Assembly (NCBI RefSeq): GCF_006716115.1
Contig: NZ_VFOO01000001.1
Location: forward strand, 1,240,001 to 1,304,000
DNA length: 64,000 nt
From: Subtercola boreus
GTDB lineage: Bacteria; Actinomycetota; Actinomycetes; Actinomycetales; Microbacteriaceae
Reading direction: 5' to 3'
In this document: in pieces, positions 58,378 through 63,455 of the stretch
How positions within the stretch are numbered: the stretch's first letter is position 1
Layout: the number at the start of each line of letters is the position of its first letter
Translations under genes and position numbers: made by a program
Notes under the pieces: model-generated
Databases searched by the model: none
Seen by the model: the letters and a program-made list of their open reading frames with translations, nothing else
What the model was told of the DNA's origin: nothing

Positions 58378-59421
58378 TCAGCCGCCCGACGACTCCCGCA
58401 CCACCAGCTCCGGCTGGAACACGACCTGCCGCGGCTCGAACCCCGGCGCGCCCTCCGTCTCCTCGAGCAGCAGGCCGACGGCGGTGCGGCCGATGGCCTC
58501 ACTCGGCTGGCGCACCGACGTGAGCGGCACCACCGTGGCCGAGGCGAAGGCGATGTCGTCGTATCCGACTAGCGCGACGTGCCGCGGCACATGCGATTCG
58601 CCCGTCATGTTCATCGCCTGCAGCACCCCCACCGCGAGCAGGTCGTTCGCCGCGAAGATGGCCTCAGGCCACTCCCGGGGGGACCGCGCCGTGACAGCGA
58701 GACCGGCCGCACGGCCTTCGATCACGGAGAGCGCCGGTGTCTCGATCACCTCGAGCCGGGCATCCGGATGCACGGCCACCGCCTGCCTCGCACCCTGGAG
58801 CCGGTCGCTGACCTGCCCGATGCCGAGCGGGCCACCGACGAACGCGACGCGCCGGTGACCGAGCGCGAGGAGATGGGCGACGGCCGCGAAACCGCCGGCC
58901 ACGTCGTCGACCGAGACCGAGGAGAACCGGGTGTCCTCGAGCCGGCGGTCGACGATCACGGCGGGGATCCCACGCGAGCGGAGGGCGACGAGGCGGGTGC
59001 TGTCGCTCGAGACCGGCGAGATCAGCACCCCACGGGTGCGCTGGGACTCGAAGAGATCGAGGTAAGTCGCCTCCCGTTCGAGGCTCTCCGAGCTGTTGGC
59101 GAGCAGCATCGAGTAGCCGTGCTCGGCAGCCTCATCCTCGGCGCCCCGGGCCACGTCGGTGAAGAACGGGTTCGACGCATCGAGCACGATGAGCCCGAAC
59201 GAACTGCTGTGACCGAGACGCAGGCGACGCGCCGCGTCGTTCCGCACGAAACCGAGCTCGGCGATCGCAGCCTGCACACGTTCTGCGACCGGCACAGACA
59301 CTTTGCCCGGACGGTTCAGAACGTTTGAGACGGTTCCGACCGAAACCCCGGCGCGGAGGGCCACGTCGCGGATGCTGACCGAGCCCGGCTCCGCTCGCAC
59401 GATCGGGGGCCTGTCAGTCAT
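58378..59421 (-). CDS. LacI family transcriptional regulator
   Basis: A 347-residue regulator. The LacI helix-turn-helix occupies residues ~14-40 (VSIRDVALRAGVSVGTVSNVLNRP), followed by the hinge helix and a periplasmic-binding-protein-like sugar domain (FGLIVLDASNPFFTDVARG, VALVGYDDIAFA). The ligand is probably a sugar, but no sugar genes are adjacent. A CAGACT box lies six bases before the ATG. A 10-bp tandem TCTATTCGGT repeat (59435-59454) lies between it and the upstream gene. Confidence 0.9.
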   Translation of the reverse strand: MTDRPPIVRAEPGSVSIRDVALRAGVSVGTVSNVLNRPGKVSVPVAERVQAAIAELGFVRNDAARRLRLGHSSSFGLIVLDASNPFFTDVARGAEDEAAEHGYSMLLANSSESLEREATYLDLFESQRTRGVLISPVSSDSTRLVALRSRGIPAVIVDRRLEDTRFSSVSVDDVAGGFAAVAHLLALGHRRVAFVGGPLGIGQVSDRLQGARQAVAVHPDARLEVIETPALSVIEGRAAGLAVTARSPREWPEAIFAANDLLAVGVLQAMNMTGESHVPRHVALVGYDDIAFASATVVPLTSVRQPSEAIGRTAVGLLLEETEGAPGFEPRQVVFQPELVVRESSGG

Positions 59422-59434
59422 CGCACCAGTCTGC

Positions 59435-59454
59435 TCTATTCGGTTCTATTCGGT
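59435..59454. repeat. 10-bp tandem duplication at the end of the monooxygenase-hydrolase gene
   Basis: TCTATTCGGT occurs twice in direct succession, and the second copy contains the stop codon (TAG on the minus strand) of the monooxygenase gene. It lies within the promoter zone of the LacI gene. Confidence 0.7.
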
Positions 59455-61866
59455 GGCTGCCGCAACCGCTGAGGGTTCGACCTCCTGCACCGAGACGCGC
59501 GCCCCGCCGGCCCCCTGCAGGAACTCCTCCACCACCGACGCGAACTCGTCGGGCCGCTCGATCTGCGGCATGTGGCCGGTTCGGGTGAAGACGTGCGACT
59601 CTGCACCCGGCAGCGCGTCCACGGCCGCCCGCAGGTGGCTGAACGGCAGGATGTGGTCGTGGTCGCCCCACACGACGAGGATGGGGATGTGGAGTGACCG
59701 GATGCGCCCGAGCAGTGTCGCGCGCCACTCCGGCCGCACCCCGCGGAACGTCCCGAGATCCCGAGCCACCTCGAGCATCGTGCGGGAGTGGCTGGAGCGC
59801 TGGGAGAGAGCGTAGGAGTGCCCGATCCGCTCCGGGGTCGCCAACGCCCGGTCGTAGAAGACGGCCTGGACGGTGCGCTCGGAGTTCCGCGGGTTCGGTC
59901 GCATCAGCGCCGCCCCGAGCGGCCGGAAGGCCAGCAGCCGCAGCACGAGGGTCACTTCGCTGCCGAAGCCGGCGCTGTCGGCCAGCACGAGGGCGGAGAC
60001 CCGATCGGGATGCGAGGCGGCGAACGTCATCGCCACGGCACCGCCGAGCGAGTTGCCGATCACCGGCACGGCTCCGGTCACGCCGACGGTGTCGAGGTAG
60101 GCGGGCAGGATGCTCGCCAGCGCCCCGAGCGTCGCCGTTCCCCGCACGCGGTTCGAGTAGGCGAACCCGGGGAGGTCGAGGCTGAGCACCCGGTGGGTCG
60201 CTGAGAGCCGGTCGTGCTGTTCCGTCCAGTCCTCGAGGCTCTGGCCGATGCCGTGCAACAACAGTACGGGGTCGCCCGAGCCGGTGTCACGGTGCCGGAG
60301 TCGCACCCCGTCGACGGTCACGAACCCGGTGCCGGGCAGGGCGAGGGGTTTCTCCGCGAGCGTGGGAGTTGCACCCCTCCGGCCGAACCGTACGTCGTCG
60401 GTGATGCGGCCCGCCCGGAACAGACGGAAATCGCGCAAGTAGTTCTGGTGGAGCCGCCACGGCGAACGCTCCCCCTGTTTCGGCAGCGCGTCGACGCTCC
60501 GCAGTACATAGCCGGCCTGCAGATCGATCAGCGGCACGAGGTCTCCCGCGGCAACGTCGGCGGGAGCATCCGGAGTCACCGTCTGGTAGCCGTGCCGCTT
60601 CATGTACTTCAGGAGACGCACCACATAGTTCGCGACGAGGTCGGCCTTGAGGGTCCATGACGCGTTCGTGTAGCCGATAGTGAGCGAGAAGTTCGGCACT
60701 CCCGCGAGCATCATGCCCTTGTAGCTGAGCGTCTTCGGCACGTCGACGGGGCGTCCGTCGACGCTCAGCGTCATCCCGCCGATCACCAGCAGGTTGAGCC
60801 CGGTCGCCGTCACGATGATGTCGGCGTCGAGGCTCTGGCCCGAGGCGAGCCGGATGCCCGTGGGAGTGATCTCGTCGATACGGTCGGTCACGATGTCGGC
60901 GTTCCCCCGGCTGATGGCACGGTAGAGGTCACCGTCGGGAATGGCGCAGAGGCGCTGATCCCACGGCTCGTACGTCGGAGCAAGATGGGTGTCGACGGCG
61001 AAGCCGGCCGGCAGTTTCGCCACGGCGGATCGCCGGAGGATGTCCTTCATCTTCTCGGGCCGACGACGGCTCAGCTGGTAGGTGAACATCGAGTAGCCGA
61101 TGTTCTTCAGCCGAACCACGTCGTATGCCAGCTGGGCGGGCAGCTTTCCGCGCAGACGGTCGGCGAGGTGGTCGCGCGACGGCACCGGCGCGATGTACGT
61201 GGGTGAACGCTGAAGCATCGTCACCTGCTCGGCGGTCTTCGCCAGCGACGGCACCAGGGTGACCGCTGTGGCCCCGCTGCCCACCACGACGACCCGCTTG
61301 CCGGCGTGGTCGAGGTCGGCGGGCCAGTGCTGCGGATGCACGATCCGACCCTCGAACGTGTCGGCCCCCGGGATCGCGGGCGTGAAGCCCTCGTCGTAGC
61401 GGTAGTAGCCCGAGCACACCGAGAGGAACGAGCAGGTGAACGTGACGGTCTGGGCGGCCGGGGCTTCCGCGTCGCCCGCATGGTATTCAGCGGCGGATGT
61501 TCGGAGGGCGGTCACCGTCCAGAGGGCCGTCTCACTCGAGAACGAGGCATCCAGTACCCGGTGGTTCAGCCGGATGCTCGGCTCCAGCCCCTCGTCCTGG
61601 ATGGTGGCGTGGATGTAGTCCCGGATGGAGCTGCCGTCGGCGATCGCCTTCGCGTCGGTCCACGGACGGAAATCGTAGCCGAGCGTGTACATGTCCGAGT
61701 CGGAGCGGATGCCCGGGTAGCGGAAGAGATCCCACGTGCCCCCGACGGAGCTCCGCGACTCGAGGACGGCGAAGGTCGTGCCGGGGAGGGCCCGCTTGAG
61801 GTGACTCGCGGCGCCTATCCCACTGAGGCCGGCGCCGACGATCAGCACATCGATGTGTTCTGTCAT
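59446..61866 (-). CDS. EthA-like Baeyer-Villiger monooxygenase fused to alpha/beta-hydrolase
   Basis: An 806-residue bifunctional protein. Residues 1-~490 closely follow EthA. The FAD site is VGAGLSG (10-16), then GGTWDLFRYPGIRSDSDMYT, the BVMO fingerprint FEGRIVHPQHWP (Phe171, Gly173, His177, Trp181), the NADPH site VGSGAT (195-200), and PKQGERSPWRLHQNYLRD near 452-469. After a short linker, residues ~512-790 are a complete alpha/beta-hydrolase with LLLHGIG, GNSLGG (Ser606), GDHD (Asp737) and TGHMP (His765). The first domain would insert oxygen beside a ketone to give an ester, and the second would cleave it. It is divergent from an EthR-like repressor and leaderless by position of TATCAT. 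Confidence 0.88.
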   Translation of the reverse strand: MTEHIDVLIVGAGLSGIGAASHLKRALPGTTFAVLESRSSVGGTWDLFRYPGIRSDSDMYTLGYDFRPWTDAKAIADGSSIRDYIHATIQDEGLEPSIRLNHRVLDASFSSETALWTVTALRTSAAEYHAGDAEAPAAQTVTFTCSFLSVCSGYYRYDEGFTPAIPGADTFEGRIVHPQHWPADLDHAGKRVVVVGSGATAVTLVPSLAKTAEQVTMLQRSPTYIAPVPSRDHLADRLRGKLPAQLAYDVVRLKNIGYSMFTYQLSRRRPEKMKDILRRSAVAKLPAGFAVDTHLAPTYEPWDQRLCAIPDGDLYRAISRGNADIVTDRIDEITPTGIRLASGQSLDADIIVTATGLNLLVIGGMTLSVDGRPVDVPKTLSYKGMMLAGVPNFSLTIGYTNASWTLKADLVANYVVRLLKYMKRHGYQTVTPDAPADVAAGDLVPLIDLQAGYVLRSVDALPKQGERSPWRLHQNYLRDFRLFRAGRITDDVRFGRRGATPTLAEKPLALPGTGFVTVDGVRLRHRDTGSGDPVLLLHGIGQSLEDWTEQHDRLSATHRVLSLDLPGFAYSNRVRGTATLGALASILPAYLDTVGVTGAVPVIGNSLGGAVAMTFAASHPDRVSALVLADSAGFGSEVTLVLRLLAFRPLGAALMRPNPRNSERTVQAVFYDRALATPERIGHSYALSQRSSHSRTMLEVARDLGTFRGVRPEWRATLLGRIRSLHIPILVVWGDHDHILPFSHLRAAVDALPGAESHVFTRTGHMPQIERPDEFASVVEEFLQGAGGARVSVQEVEPSAVAAATE

Positions 61867-61872
61867 GCACTC

Positions 61873-61935
61873 ATGATAGACACGGTGTCGACTTAATCAA
61901 CACCCTGTTGACTGAGCGCCCGGAATGGCTAGGGT
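61873..61935. promoter_or_regulatory. Divergent promoters with operator for the EthA/EthR-like pair
   Basis: The minus promoter has -35 TTGATT (61900-61895), a 16-base spacer and -10 TATCAT (61878-61873), six bases before the monooxygenase ATG. The plus promoter has -35 TTGACT (61908-61913), a 16-base spacer and -10 TAGGGT (61930-61935), seven bases before the TetR ATG. The palindrome TCAACACCCTGTTGA (61897-61911) overlaps both -35 boxes and is the likely repressor site. Confidence 0.75.
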
Positions 61936-61942
61936 GGGTCGC

Positions 61943-62554
61943 ATGGCCCAACGAGGACGCAGAACGACACGCCTGAGCGGCGACGAGCGGCAGGAGGCGA
62001 TCCTCATCACCGCCGAGACGCTGCTGGCCGAGCGCAGCCTCGACGAGATCTCCATCGAAGACCTCGCGACAGGCGCCGGAATCTCCCGGCCGAGCTTCTA
62101 CTTCTACTTCTCCTCGAAGGACGAGGTGCTGCTCGCGCTGCTCGACCGCGTGATCGGTGAAGTGCAGCAGCGCGTGGTGACGCTCCCCCGCGACTTCGAC
62201 ACCGACCCCGCGGCGGCGTGGCGACGCGCCATCGGCGTGTTCGTCGACGTCTTCGCGGCGCACCGGTCGGTGTCGGCGGCCGCCATCGGGGCGCGGCTCC
62301 GCAACCCCGAGGTGAATGCGCTCTGGTCGTCGGCGATGCAGACCTGGGTGGGCTACGCGACCGATGTGATCGTCGCCGAGCGGGCCCGCGGTGCGGCTCC
62401 GGCGGGAACGGATGCCCGGCAGCTCGCCATCGCCCTGAACCTGATGAACGAACGTGTGCTCTCGGCGGCGTTCAGCGGGGAGACCCCCGCCGTCGACCAG
62501 TCGGTCGCGCTCGACGTGCTGGCGGGCATCTGGATCCGCAGCATCTACAACTGA
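61943..62554 (+). CDS. EthR-like TetR family repressor
   Basis: A 203-residue regulator strongly reminiscent of mycobacterial EthR. The helix-turn-helix region ILITAETLLAERSLDEISIEDLATGAGISRPSFYFYF is near residues 20-56. The C-terminal region ALNLMNERVLSAAFSGE (about 165-181) has EthR wording. EthR represses ethA and binds hydrophobic ligands. The ATG at 61943 is seven bases after TAGGGT; an upstream ATG at 61925 would precede that promoter. The gap to the divergent monooxygenase contains a single 15-bp operator rather than the long EthR site of mycobacteria. Confidence 0.88.
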   Translation: MAQRGRRTTRLSGDERQEAILITAETLLAERSLDEISIEDLATGAGISRPSFYFYFSSKDEVLLALLDRVIGEVQQRVVTLPRDFDTDPAAAWRRAIGVFVDVFAAHRSVSAAAIGARLRNPEVNALWSSAMQTWVGYATDVIVAERARGAAPAGTDARQLAIALNLMNERVLSAAFSGETPAVDQSVALDVLAGIWIRSIYN

Positions 62555-62597: not shown

Positions 62598-63455
62598 ATG
62601 CAGAAGATAACGAAAGTCACCGTGCTCGGAACCGGCGTCCTGGGTTCGCAGATCGCGTTCCAGGCTGCCTGGTTCGGTTACGACGTCACGGCCTACGACC
62701 TCTCCGACGAGCTTGTGGCTGCCGCGCGGGAGCGGTTCGCGAAACTCGCCGGCGTCTACACCGCCGACAAGGTGGGCGGCGGGGGCGAGGGTCGAGGCGA
62801 GCGGGTGCTGGCGGGCATCCGCGTCACCAGCGACCTCGGGGCGGCCGTGGCCGACGCCGACCTCGTGATCGAGGCGGTGCCCGAGAATCTCGACGTGAAA
62901 CGCGACACCTACACGAAGCTCGCCTCCCTCGCTCCGGAGAAGACGATTTTCGCGACGAACTCGTCCACGCTATTGCCGAGCGATCTGAAGGAGTACACCG
63001 GCCGGCCCGACCGCTTCCTCGCCCTGCACTATGCGAACAACGTCTGGCGGCAGAACACGGCCGAGGTGATGGGCACTGCCGACACCGATCCGGCCGTGTT
63101 CCAGGCCGTCGTGGAGTTCGCGACCGGCAGCGGCCTCGTTCCGATCGAGCTCAAGAAGGAGAAGGCCGGTTACGTTCTGAACTCGCTGCTCGTGCCGTTC
63201 CTGAACGCGGCGGCCGGGCTGCTGGTCGGCGGGTTCGCCGACGTCGAGACGATCGACAAGACCTGGCGGATCGCGACCGGCGCACCGGTCGGTCCGTTCC
63301 AGATCTACGACGTGATCGGGCTCACGACGCCGTACAACATCGCGTCGGCCAACCCTGACGCCGGGTCCCAGGCCTTCGCGGCATTCCTGAAGGAGCAGTA
63401 CATCGACAAGGGCAAGCTCGGCGTCGCCACCGGCGAGGGCTTCTACCGGTACTGA
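62598..63455 (+). CDS. 3-hydroxyacyl-CoA dehydrogenase-like protein
   Basis: A 285-residue NAD-dependent dehydrogenase of the 3-hydroxybutyryl-CoA dehydrogenase family. It has VLGTGVLGSQIA (NAD site, residues ~9-20), VIEAVPENLDVKRD, IFATNSSTLLPSDL with the catalytic Ser/Asn area, FLALHYANNVW with His, and the helical C-terminal domain. A charged Gly-rich insert (GGGGEGRGER) lies near residue 57. Some members of this branch act on acyl substrates other than CoA esters. It follows the EthR-like gene by 43 bases on the same strand and may use the carbon freed by the monooxygenase-hydrolase. AAAGG precedes the ATG. Confidence 0.85.
   Translation: MQKITKVTVLGTGVLGSQIAFQAAWFGYDVTAYDLSDELVAAARERFAKLAGVYTADKVGGGGEGRGERVLAGIRVTSDLGAAVADADLVIEAVPENLDVKRDTYTKLASLAPEKTIFATNSSTLLPSDLKEYTGRPDRFLALHYANNVWRQNTAEVMGTADTDPAVFQAVVEFATGSGLVPIELKKEKAGYVLNSLLVPFLNAAAGLLVGGFADVETIDKTWRIATGAPVGPFQIYDVIGLTTPYNIASANPDAGSQAFAAFLKEQYIDKGKLGVATGEGFYRY

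What the first reader, a model, noticed from the sequence alone, without database searches (positions are those of the whole stretch)
59446..61866. Baeyer-Villiger monooxygenase and esterase joined in one 806-residue protein
The EthA-like half has an intact BVMO fingerprint (FEGRIVHPQHWP), and the C-terminal half has a full Ser606/Asp737/His765 hydrolase triad. A ketone could be oxidised to an ester and cleaved without releasing the intermediate. I know BVMO and esterase genes as neighbours, but a fusion to an EthA-type enzyme under an EthR-type repressor seems rare. A 3-hydroxyacyl-CoA dehydrogenase next door suggests a small ketone-use module.
Basis: partly seen in the sequence, partly recalled or inferred. 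Interest (0 to 1): 0.8.

Follow-up and report, generated by a model that had tools for sequence, protein, structure and literature searches.

The report
Ketone oxidase fused to an esterase
A soil bacterium carries one protein joining two enzymes that normally sit side by side, one that should turn ketones into esters and one that should cut esters, and the same joined protein occurs in related bacteria under a control switch like that of the tuberculosis drug-activating enzyme EthA.

Summary
Confirmed: window 59446-61866 (minus) encodes one 806-residue protein with an intact type I Baeyer-Villiger monooxygenase (BVMO) half and an alpha/beta-hydrolase half with Ser606/Asp737/His765. It is not a sequencing error: the fusion occurs in 10 named genera of Microbacteriaceae and Micrococcaceae, mostly as one clade (34 fused rows, two without the hydrolase). 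Relatives keep the two proteins as neighbouring genes. Other BVMO-hydrolase fusions exist, including Deinococcus radiodurans with another hydrolase family in reverse order. Both halves are under purifying selection. The divergent neighbour is an EthR relative; between them lies a paired inverted repeat found once in the genome, and 59 of 64 related loci carry such pairs. A 3-hydroxyacyl-CoA dehydrogenase or a particular SDR lies nearby, never both at my thresholds (0 of 129). Most likely it converts a ketone to an ester and then to acid plus alcohol. Activity, substrate and channelling are untested; the variable linker and pTM 0.68 lend no support to a rigid channel. BVMO-esterase pairs are known; this fusion in the EthA/EthR family appeared in no listing of six paper searches.

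The parts
59446..61866 (-). fused BVMO-alpha/beta hydrolase gene, 806 aa
60382..61866 (-). BVMO half, residues 1-495 (both Rossmann motifs, both type I fingerprints)
61321..61356 (-). BVMO fingerprint FEGRIVHPQHWP, residues 171-182
   Evidence: in 36 nonredundant fused rows G173, H177, W181 and P182 are invariant and F171 is kept in 35
60331..60381 (-). linker, residues 496-512, variable in length and sequence between relatives
59449..60330 (-). alpha/beta hydrolase half, residues 513-806 (residues 794-806 have pLDDT under 50)
60049..60051 (-). Ser606 nucleophile in GNSLGG
   Evidence: 36 of 36 nonredundant fused rows
59656..59658 (-). Asp737
   Evidence: 34 of 36, exceptions L057 and L065, whose hydrolase match is split in two pieces near the 3' end
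59572..59574 (-). His765
   Evidence: 34 of 36, same two exceptions
61877..61911 (.). paired operator-like inverted repeats TCAACAGGGTGTTGA-N5-TCGACACCGTGTCTA, 20-bp period, between the divergent genes
   Evidence: only place in the genome at up to 2 mismatches; pairs in 59 of 64 related divergent loci
61925..62554 (+). EthR-type TetR repressor, divergent
   Evidence: EthR_C PF21313 E 4.7e-42; M. tuberculosis EthR 1t56 E 1.1e-61
62598..63455 (+). 3-hydroxyacyl-CoA dehydrogenase-family gene (start placed by me at the ATG of MQKITKV within the listed frame), follows the repressor in the same direction
   Evidence: NF006143 398 bits against cut-off 312

Best explanation
A self-contained catabolic enzyme. 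The EthA-type BVMO half uses FAD, NADPH and O2 to insert oxygen next to a ketone, giving an ester or lactone; the C-terminal hydrolase half, tethered by a flexible linker, cleaves that ester to a carboxylic acid plus an alcohol. The dehydrogenase next door (3HCDH family here, an SDR in some relatives) most likely makes the ketone from a secondary alcohol. The EthR-type repressor sits on paired 20-bp-spaced operators between the divergent genes and releases both units when a pathway lipid (ketone or ester) binds its tunnel. Shown by sequence: architecture, catalytic residues, conservation, repeat pairs, gene partners, repeated fusion. Inferred: enzyme activities, order of reactions, lipid-like substrate, repressor binding and inducer, and that the tether raises local concentration rather than forming a closed channel.
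For: Intact BVMO motifs and hydrolase triad. Purifying selection on both halves: window against six Subtercola-type relatives, dN/dS 0.10-0.18 (BVMO) and 0.14-0.30 (hydrolase). The fused hydrolase is kin to hydrolases encoded beside BVMOs (48-58% identity in the actinobacterial loci, 26-47% in plasmid loci L149, L151, L152), while other hydrolases of this genome reach at most 38% over short stretches. Ten Micromonospora loci carry BVMO, SDR and hydrolase in a row, often with overlapping ends. Further fusions with a more distant hydrolase (L144) and in reverse order (D. radiodurans, L150). Dehydrogenase alternation, 0 of 129 with both. A fatty-acyl-CoA ligase gene follows the fused frame in Streptomyces L148. 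Separate BVMO and hydrolase enzymes doing exactly this sequence are published (BpfC/BpfD, PMC12724174 passages).
Against: No activity or substrate was tested. By sequence the hydrolase half is closest among solved structures to HsaD/BphD C-C hydrolases, so an ester substrate is not proven. In two rows of the fused clade the hydrolase half is absent (L023, L068) and in L057/L065 its end is disrupted, so it is dispensable in some hosts. Other Micromonospora loci have BVMO and SDR without this hydrolase. 52 of 129 loci show neither dehydrogenase, though many of those are short stretches, and a more distant SDR-family gene (32%) does lie beside the 3HCDH in L042.
Confidence: 0.72

Rival explanations
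1. The hydrolase half is a C-C bond hydrolase (meta-cleavage type, like HsaD) or another non-esterase, and the fusion serves ring cleavage rather than ester cleavage.
For: Best solved-structure matches of the hydrolase half are HsaD and BphD (116 and 96 bits); the nucleophile elbow GNSLGG is the same as in HsaD.
Against: Where HsaD has GHW at the catalytic His the window has GHM; that the Trp is a mark of this group is recalled. 112 bits against the HsaD cut-off of 400. BVMO products are esters. No ring-cleavage dioxygenase was recognised nearby, but three weaker recurrent neighbour clusters were not annotated.
Confidence: 0.1
2. The dehydrogenase makes 3-ketoacyl-CoA and the BVMO oxidises it, so that the fusion shortens acyl chains by oxidation and hydrolysis instead of thiolysis.
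For: The neighbour scores above the curated cut-off for 3-hydroxyacyl-CoA dehydrogenase, and a relative lies near the BVMO gene in 28 of 78 named loci.
Against: In other relatives an SDR takes its place, which points to a simple hydroxyl-to-ketone step. No BVMO acting on 3-ketoacyl-CoA is known to me (recalled).
Confidence: 0.08
3. The BVMO half is mainly a heteroatom (sulfur, thioamide) oxidase as known from EthA drug activation, and the hydrolase half is an unrelated scavenging esterase.
For: Mycobacterial EthA activates thiocarbamide drugs (PMC5403819 passages), and the BVMO half is 51-55% identical to stand-alone BVMOs beside EthR-like repressors (L128-L145).
Against: Repeated fusion and operon pairing with hydrolases make an ester intermediate more likely; those drugs are man-made.
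Confidence: 0.07
4. The fusion is an artefact of sequencing or assembly that joined two genes.
For: None found for this clade; the hydrolase exists as a separate gene in relatives.
Against: Same fusion in 10 named genera from separate assemblies, with linker sequence and length drifting as expected for real coding sequence.
Confidence: 0.01

Closest known systems
EthA/EthR locus of mycobacteria
   Same: BVMO half 51-55% identical to stand-alone BVMOs beside EthR-like repressors (L128-L145), MTEH start shared with several of them, divergent EthR relative, same kind of paired repeats upstream. L131 is a real EthR locus: its repressor matches M. tuberculosis EthR at 363 bits; L130's scores 222 bits, close to the window's 211.
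   Different: EthA is a single enzyme of about 490 residues (length from L131); here a hydrolase is fused on and a dehydrogenase follows the repressor.
BVMO plus separate alpha/beta hydrolase gene pairs (BpfC/BpfD of Sphingobium yanoikuyae DN12; BVMO-hydrolase clusters of Sphingobium sp. AntQ-1)
   Same: Ketone to ester to acid plus phenol by a type I BVMO and a Ser-Asp-His hydrolase, assayed for BpfC/BpfD (PMC12724174 and PMC9836352, passages).
   Different: Two separate proteins, aromatic substrates; nothing on EthR-type control in the passages seen.
mymA operon of M. tuberculosis (seven genes, PMC13234193 passages; its esterase, SDR and acyl-CoA ligase genes are recalled)
   Same: BVMO in an operon with further lipid or alcohol genes.
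   Different: Unfused (recalled); regulated by VirS, not an EthR-type repressor.
Deinococcus radiodurans WP_010884002.1 (alpha/beta hydrolase fold domain-containing protein)
   Same: Natural hydrolase-BVMO fusion, BVMO half 52% identical.
   Different: Hydrolase at the N-terminus and of family Abhydrolase_3: an independent fusion.

Membership tests
type I Baeyer-Villiger monooxygenase | FxGxxxHxxxW[P/D] fingerprint | tested here: met
   FEGRIVHPQHWP 171-182; pattern as printed in PMC9836352
type I Baeyer-Villiger monooxygenase | [A/G]GxWxxxx[F/Y]P[G/M]xxxD and two GxGxx[G/A] motifs | tested here: met
   GGTWDLFRYPGIRSD 42-56, GAGLSG 11-16, GSGATA 196-201; G11, G13, G16, G42, G43, W45, Y50, P51, D56, G196, G198 invariant in 36 of 36 fused rows
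type I Baeyer-Villiger monooxygenase | fold of CHMO/PAMO/OTEMO | tested here: met
   AlphaFold2 model pLDDT 88.3; the 50 listed Foldseek hits are BVMOs, TM 0.59-0.71 by target length
type I Baeyer-Villiger monooxygenase | oxidises ketones to esters with NADPH and O2 | not testable with these tools
   needs purified enzyme
EthA/EthR system | divergent EthR-type repressor | tested here: met
   E 1.1e-61 to M. tuberculosis EthR over residues 9-208
EthA/EthR system | shared operator between the two genes | tested here: inconclusive
   paired 15-bp inverted repeats, 20-bp period, also upstream of the BVMO in the EthR locus L131; the motif was read off the same sequences, the published EthR footprint was not at hand, binding not tested
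EthA/EthR system | BVMO is a stand-alone protein | tested here: not met
   806 aa with hydrolase domain
alpha/beta-hydrolase serine esterase | GxSxG elbow and Ser-Asp-His triad in the right order | tested here: met
   conserved 36/36, 34/36, 34/36
alpha/beta-hydrolase serine esterase | cleaves esters | not testable with these tools
   needs assay
HsaD-type C-C hydrolase | NCBIfam NF045632 cut-off (400 bits) | tested here: not met
   112.2 bits

The most novel reading that the evidence does not exclude
The fusion exposes the native job of the EthA/EthR family: a lipid-ketone pathway in which EthR senses the long-chain ester (or ketone) and the fused hydrolase destroys that signal, so one polypeptide both makes and erases the inducer. 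EthR was crystallised with a linear ester, hexadecyl octanoate, the kind of product a BVMO would make from a C24 ketone; its physiological ligand is called unidentified (PMC7382501 passages) and EthA's role unknown (PMC5403819 passages). Of the EthR tunnel residues (list recalled), W103, F110, F114, W138, W145, N179 and W207 are kept in 31 of 31 repressors beside fused genes and N176 in 30; M142 in 28, while T121 and F184 are not kept. Against: PMC7382501 notes that the linear ester leaves part of the tunnel empty and suggests larger, branched or cyclic effectors.
Probability: 0.25. Interest if true: 0.8.

Novelty: new variant of a known kind. Interest (0 to 1): 0.55.

Why it matters
The natural role of EthA and the natural ligand of EthR are called unknown in the papers whose passages I saw. 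A conserved fusion of an EthA-type enzyme to a hydrolase, in soil and leaf bacteria, predicts that the natural product is an ester that must be cleaved, and gives a safe system in which to find substrate and inducer. For biocatalysis it offers a natural candidate for a one-protein ketone-to-acid-plus-alcohol conversion and several independent fusion designs to compare.

Tried and rejected
Assembly or sequencing error: rejected by the spread of the fusion. Single origin of the fusions: rejected for L069 (held with the main clade and its two losses, p-AU 2e-87). The test on all 36 same-order fused rows (p 5.6e-65) also forces the two losses outside, so it is a weaker argument; L148 was not tested on its own. 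HsaD-type hydrolase: below cut-off. Dead hydrolase half: rejected by conservation and dN/dS, except L057/L065. Besides the six comparisons with the window, one search ran four other pairs: hydrolase dN/dS 0.24, 0.21 and 0.10, and 0.58 for L043 against the disrupted L057. LacI-family gene 24 nt downstream (58378-59421): besides the window in place only in two S. boreus loci (L038, L063; L009 is the genome of L038), so not counted as part of the module. Wider neighbours as substrate clue: besides the BVMO/hydrolase cluster, the repressor, the 3HCDH and the SDR recur most; three weaker clusters (3-6 loci) were not annotated. Papers: on this question listed 0, 2, 20 of 22, 0, 15 of 23 and 6 papers; none was recognisably on a natural BVMO-esterase fusion. 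I saw those listings with the starts of abstracts, and passages of seven papers; most subscription journals are not in the library.

Full report
What is there. The window holds one uninterrupted gene at 59446-61866 on the minus strand, 806 codons. The N-terminal half carries the two Rossmann motifs and both type I BVMO fingerprints; the C-terminal half is an alpha/beta hydrolase with the elbow GNSLGG (Ser606), Asp737 and His765. An AlphaFold2 model made from an alignment of 69 sequences has mean pLDDT 88.3 and pTM 0.68: two well-predicted domains whose mutual placement is uncertain. The 50 Foldseek hits listed are BVMOs such as cyclohexanone, steroid and phenylacetone monooxygenase and OTEMO. 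The genome is of Subtercola or very close: contig G153:C24, from a genome listed as same genus, has the length of the S. boreus contig of L038, and the BVMO half is 92% identical to S. boreus L063.

How common it is. A scan of one genome per species kept the best 80 of 311 loci. In 32 of these 80 both halves lie in one frame, in 14 the hydrolase is a separate gene downstream, and in 34 no hydrolase above 60 bits was found on that strand within 4 kb; some of the 34 have a more distant one nearby, such as L087 (28%). In 299 genomes of the family, 44 have a match at E 1e-60; in 14, the window's own included, both halves lie in one frame, of which G140 is broken by stops. In 396 genomes drawn from the phylum, 46 have such a match, but only the window's own and G349 (L144) match over both halves in one row, so the fusion is local rather than general. 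Fused genes come from ten named genera: Subtercola, Agreia, Cryobacterium, Curtobacterium, Frondihabitans, Naasia, Rathayibacter, Arthrobacter, Paenarthrobacter and Pseudarthrobacter.

Origin. A tree of 129 nonredundant BVMO halves puts 34 fused rows and two that lack the hydrolase (L023, L068) on one side of a branch with support 95; one fusion with two later losses is the simplest reading. Just outside stands L086, where the two genes overlap but are separate; it is a long branch. Further fusions stand elsewhere: L069, whose nearest kin L100 (Arthrobacter oryzae) has the two genes apart; Streptomyces plasmid L148; L144, with a more distant hydrolase; and D. radiodurans L150, hydrolase first and of family Abhydrolase_3. 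Grouping L069 with the main clade is rejected (p-AU 2e-87). L069, L148 and L144 each rest on one assembly; for L148 the annotation table, which is incomplete by design, lists only the hydrolase part as a CDS although the frame is open throughout. In the tree of hydrolase halves 34 fused and 20 adjacent rows group together (support 97), apart from L144, L152 and other hydrolases of the window's genome.

Selection. Against six Subtercola-type relatives dN/dS is 0.10-0.18 for the BVMO half and 0.14-0.30 for the hydrolase half. Ser606 is kept in 36 of 36 nonredundant fused rows, Asp737 and His765 in 34 of 36; in both exceptions, L057 and L065, the hydrolase match is split near its end. The linker varies: the gap between the matches of the two halves is 37 to 151 nt.

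Regulation. The divergent gene is an EthR relative (M. tuberculosis EthR, E 1.1e-61). Between the two starts lie two 15-bp inverted repeats of the form TCRACANNNTGTYGA (the second with one mismatch), 20 bp apart, at 61877-61911. The pair, searched with a pattern fitted to the window's copy, occurs at one place in the 4.2-Mb genome with up to 2 mismatches; the reversed control pattern gives none. Of 64 nonredundant divergent loci, 59 have at least two copies with up to 2 mismatches, with spacing 20 bp in 60 of 68 gaps; shuffles gave none; L034 and L048 have one copy, L089, L093 and L110 none. The motif was read from these same regions, so the count is descriptive. A locus with a true EthR (L131, 363 bits to M. 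tuberculosis EthR) shows the same repeats beside a stand-alone BVMO, which ties the fusion to the EthA/EthR family; the repressor of L130 scores 222 bits.

Module partners. In the nonredundant set, 41 of 129 loci have an SDR (over 120 bits to the Micromonospora one) and 36 the 3-hydroxyacyl-CoA dehydrogenase (over 60 bits) within about 4 kb, and none has both; 52 have neither, many of them short stretches. The rule depends on these thresholds: L042 has a 32% SDR-family gene beside its 3HCDH. The Fisher value for the 78 named loci (1e-9) ignores relatedness. The two dehydrogenases swap between close relatives: Naasia lichenicola L052 has the 3HCDH and Rathayibacter L053 an SDR just behind the fused gene. 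Ten Micromonospora loci run BVMO, SDR, hydrolase; others have BVMO and SDR only. In Streptomyces L148 an acyl-CoA ligase follows.

How it most likely works. Secondary alcohol to ketone (neighbouring dehydrogenase), ketone to ester (BVMO half), ester to acid plus alcohol (hydrolase half), acid to acyl-CoA elsewhere. The order is inferred from chemistry and gene partnership and matches the assayed separate enzymes BpfC and BpfD (PMC12724174 passages). The reason for tethering may be local concentration, fixed stoichiometry, or removal of an ester that would otherwise build up; a closed channel is not supported by the model or the linker. The hydrolase half is nearest to HsaD/BphD in the PDB but has GHM where HsaD has GHW, so ester specificity remains to be shown.

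Novelty. BVMO-esterase pairs are well known; natural fusion proteins of this type, conserved across genera and tied to EthR-type control, turned up in none of the listings of six paper searches (two of the lists were capped). I file it as a new variant of a known kind. Its main value is that it makes the unsolved natural role of EthA and EthR testable in soil and leaf bacteria.

Noticed in passing
L002 (own genome, G000:C1 about 3961347-3962360): A second BVMO-like gene, 34% identical over residues 2-359; its open frame shows no match to the hydrolase half.
   Followed up: partly
L020 and L061 (Agreia sp. Leaf283): The fused gene is broken inside the BVMO half (stops reported in the match), while the copies of two other Agreia strains (L058, L059) are open.
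   Followed up: no
L023, L068 (the latter Frondihabitans sp. Leaf304): Rows of the fused clade in which the hydrolase half is missing and the BVMO stands alone beside the same EthR-type repressor.
   Followed up: partly
window 58378-59421 (minus): A LacI-family regulator starts 24 nt behind the fused gene on the same strand, followed by a second TetR gene and a metallo-beta-lactamase-fold gene; besides the window this set was seen only in two S. boreus loci of the 80 named ones.
   Followed up: partly
L150 3933-6434 (Deinococcus radiodurans plasmid pMP1): Annotated only as alpha/beta hydrolase fold domain-containing protein (WP_010884002.1), it is a hydrolase-BVMO fusion in the reverse order.
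   Followed up: partly
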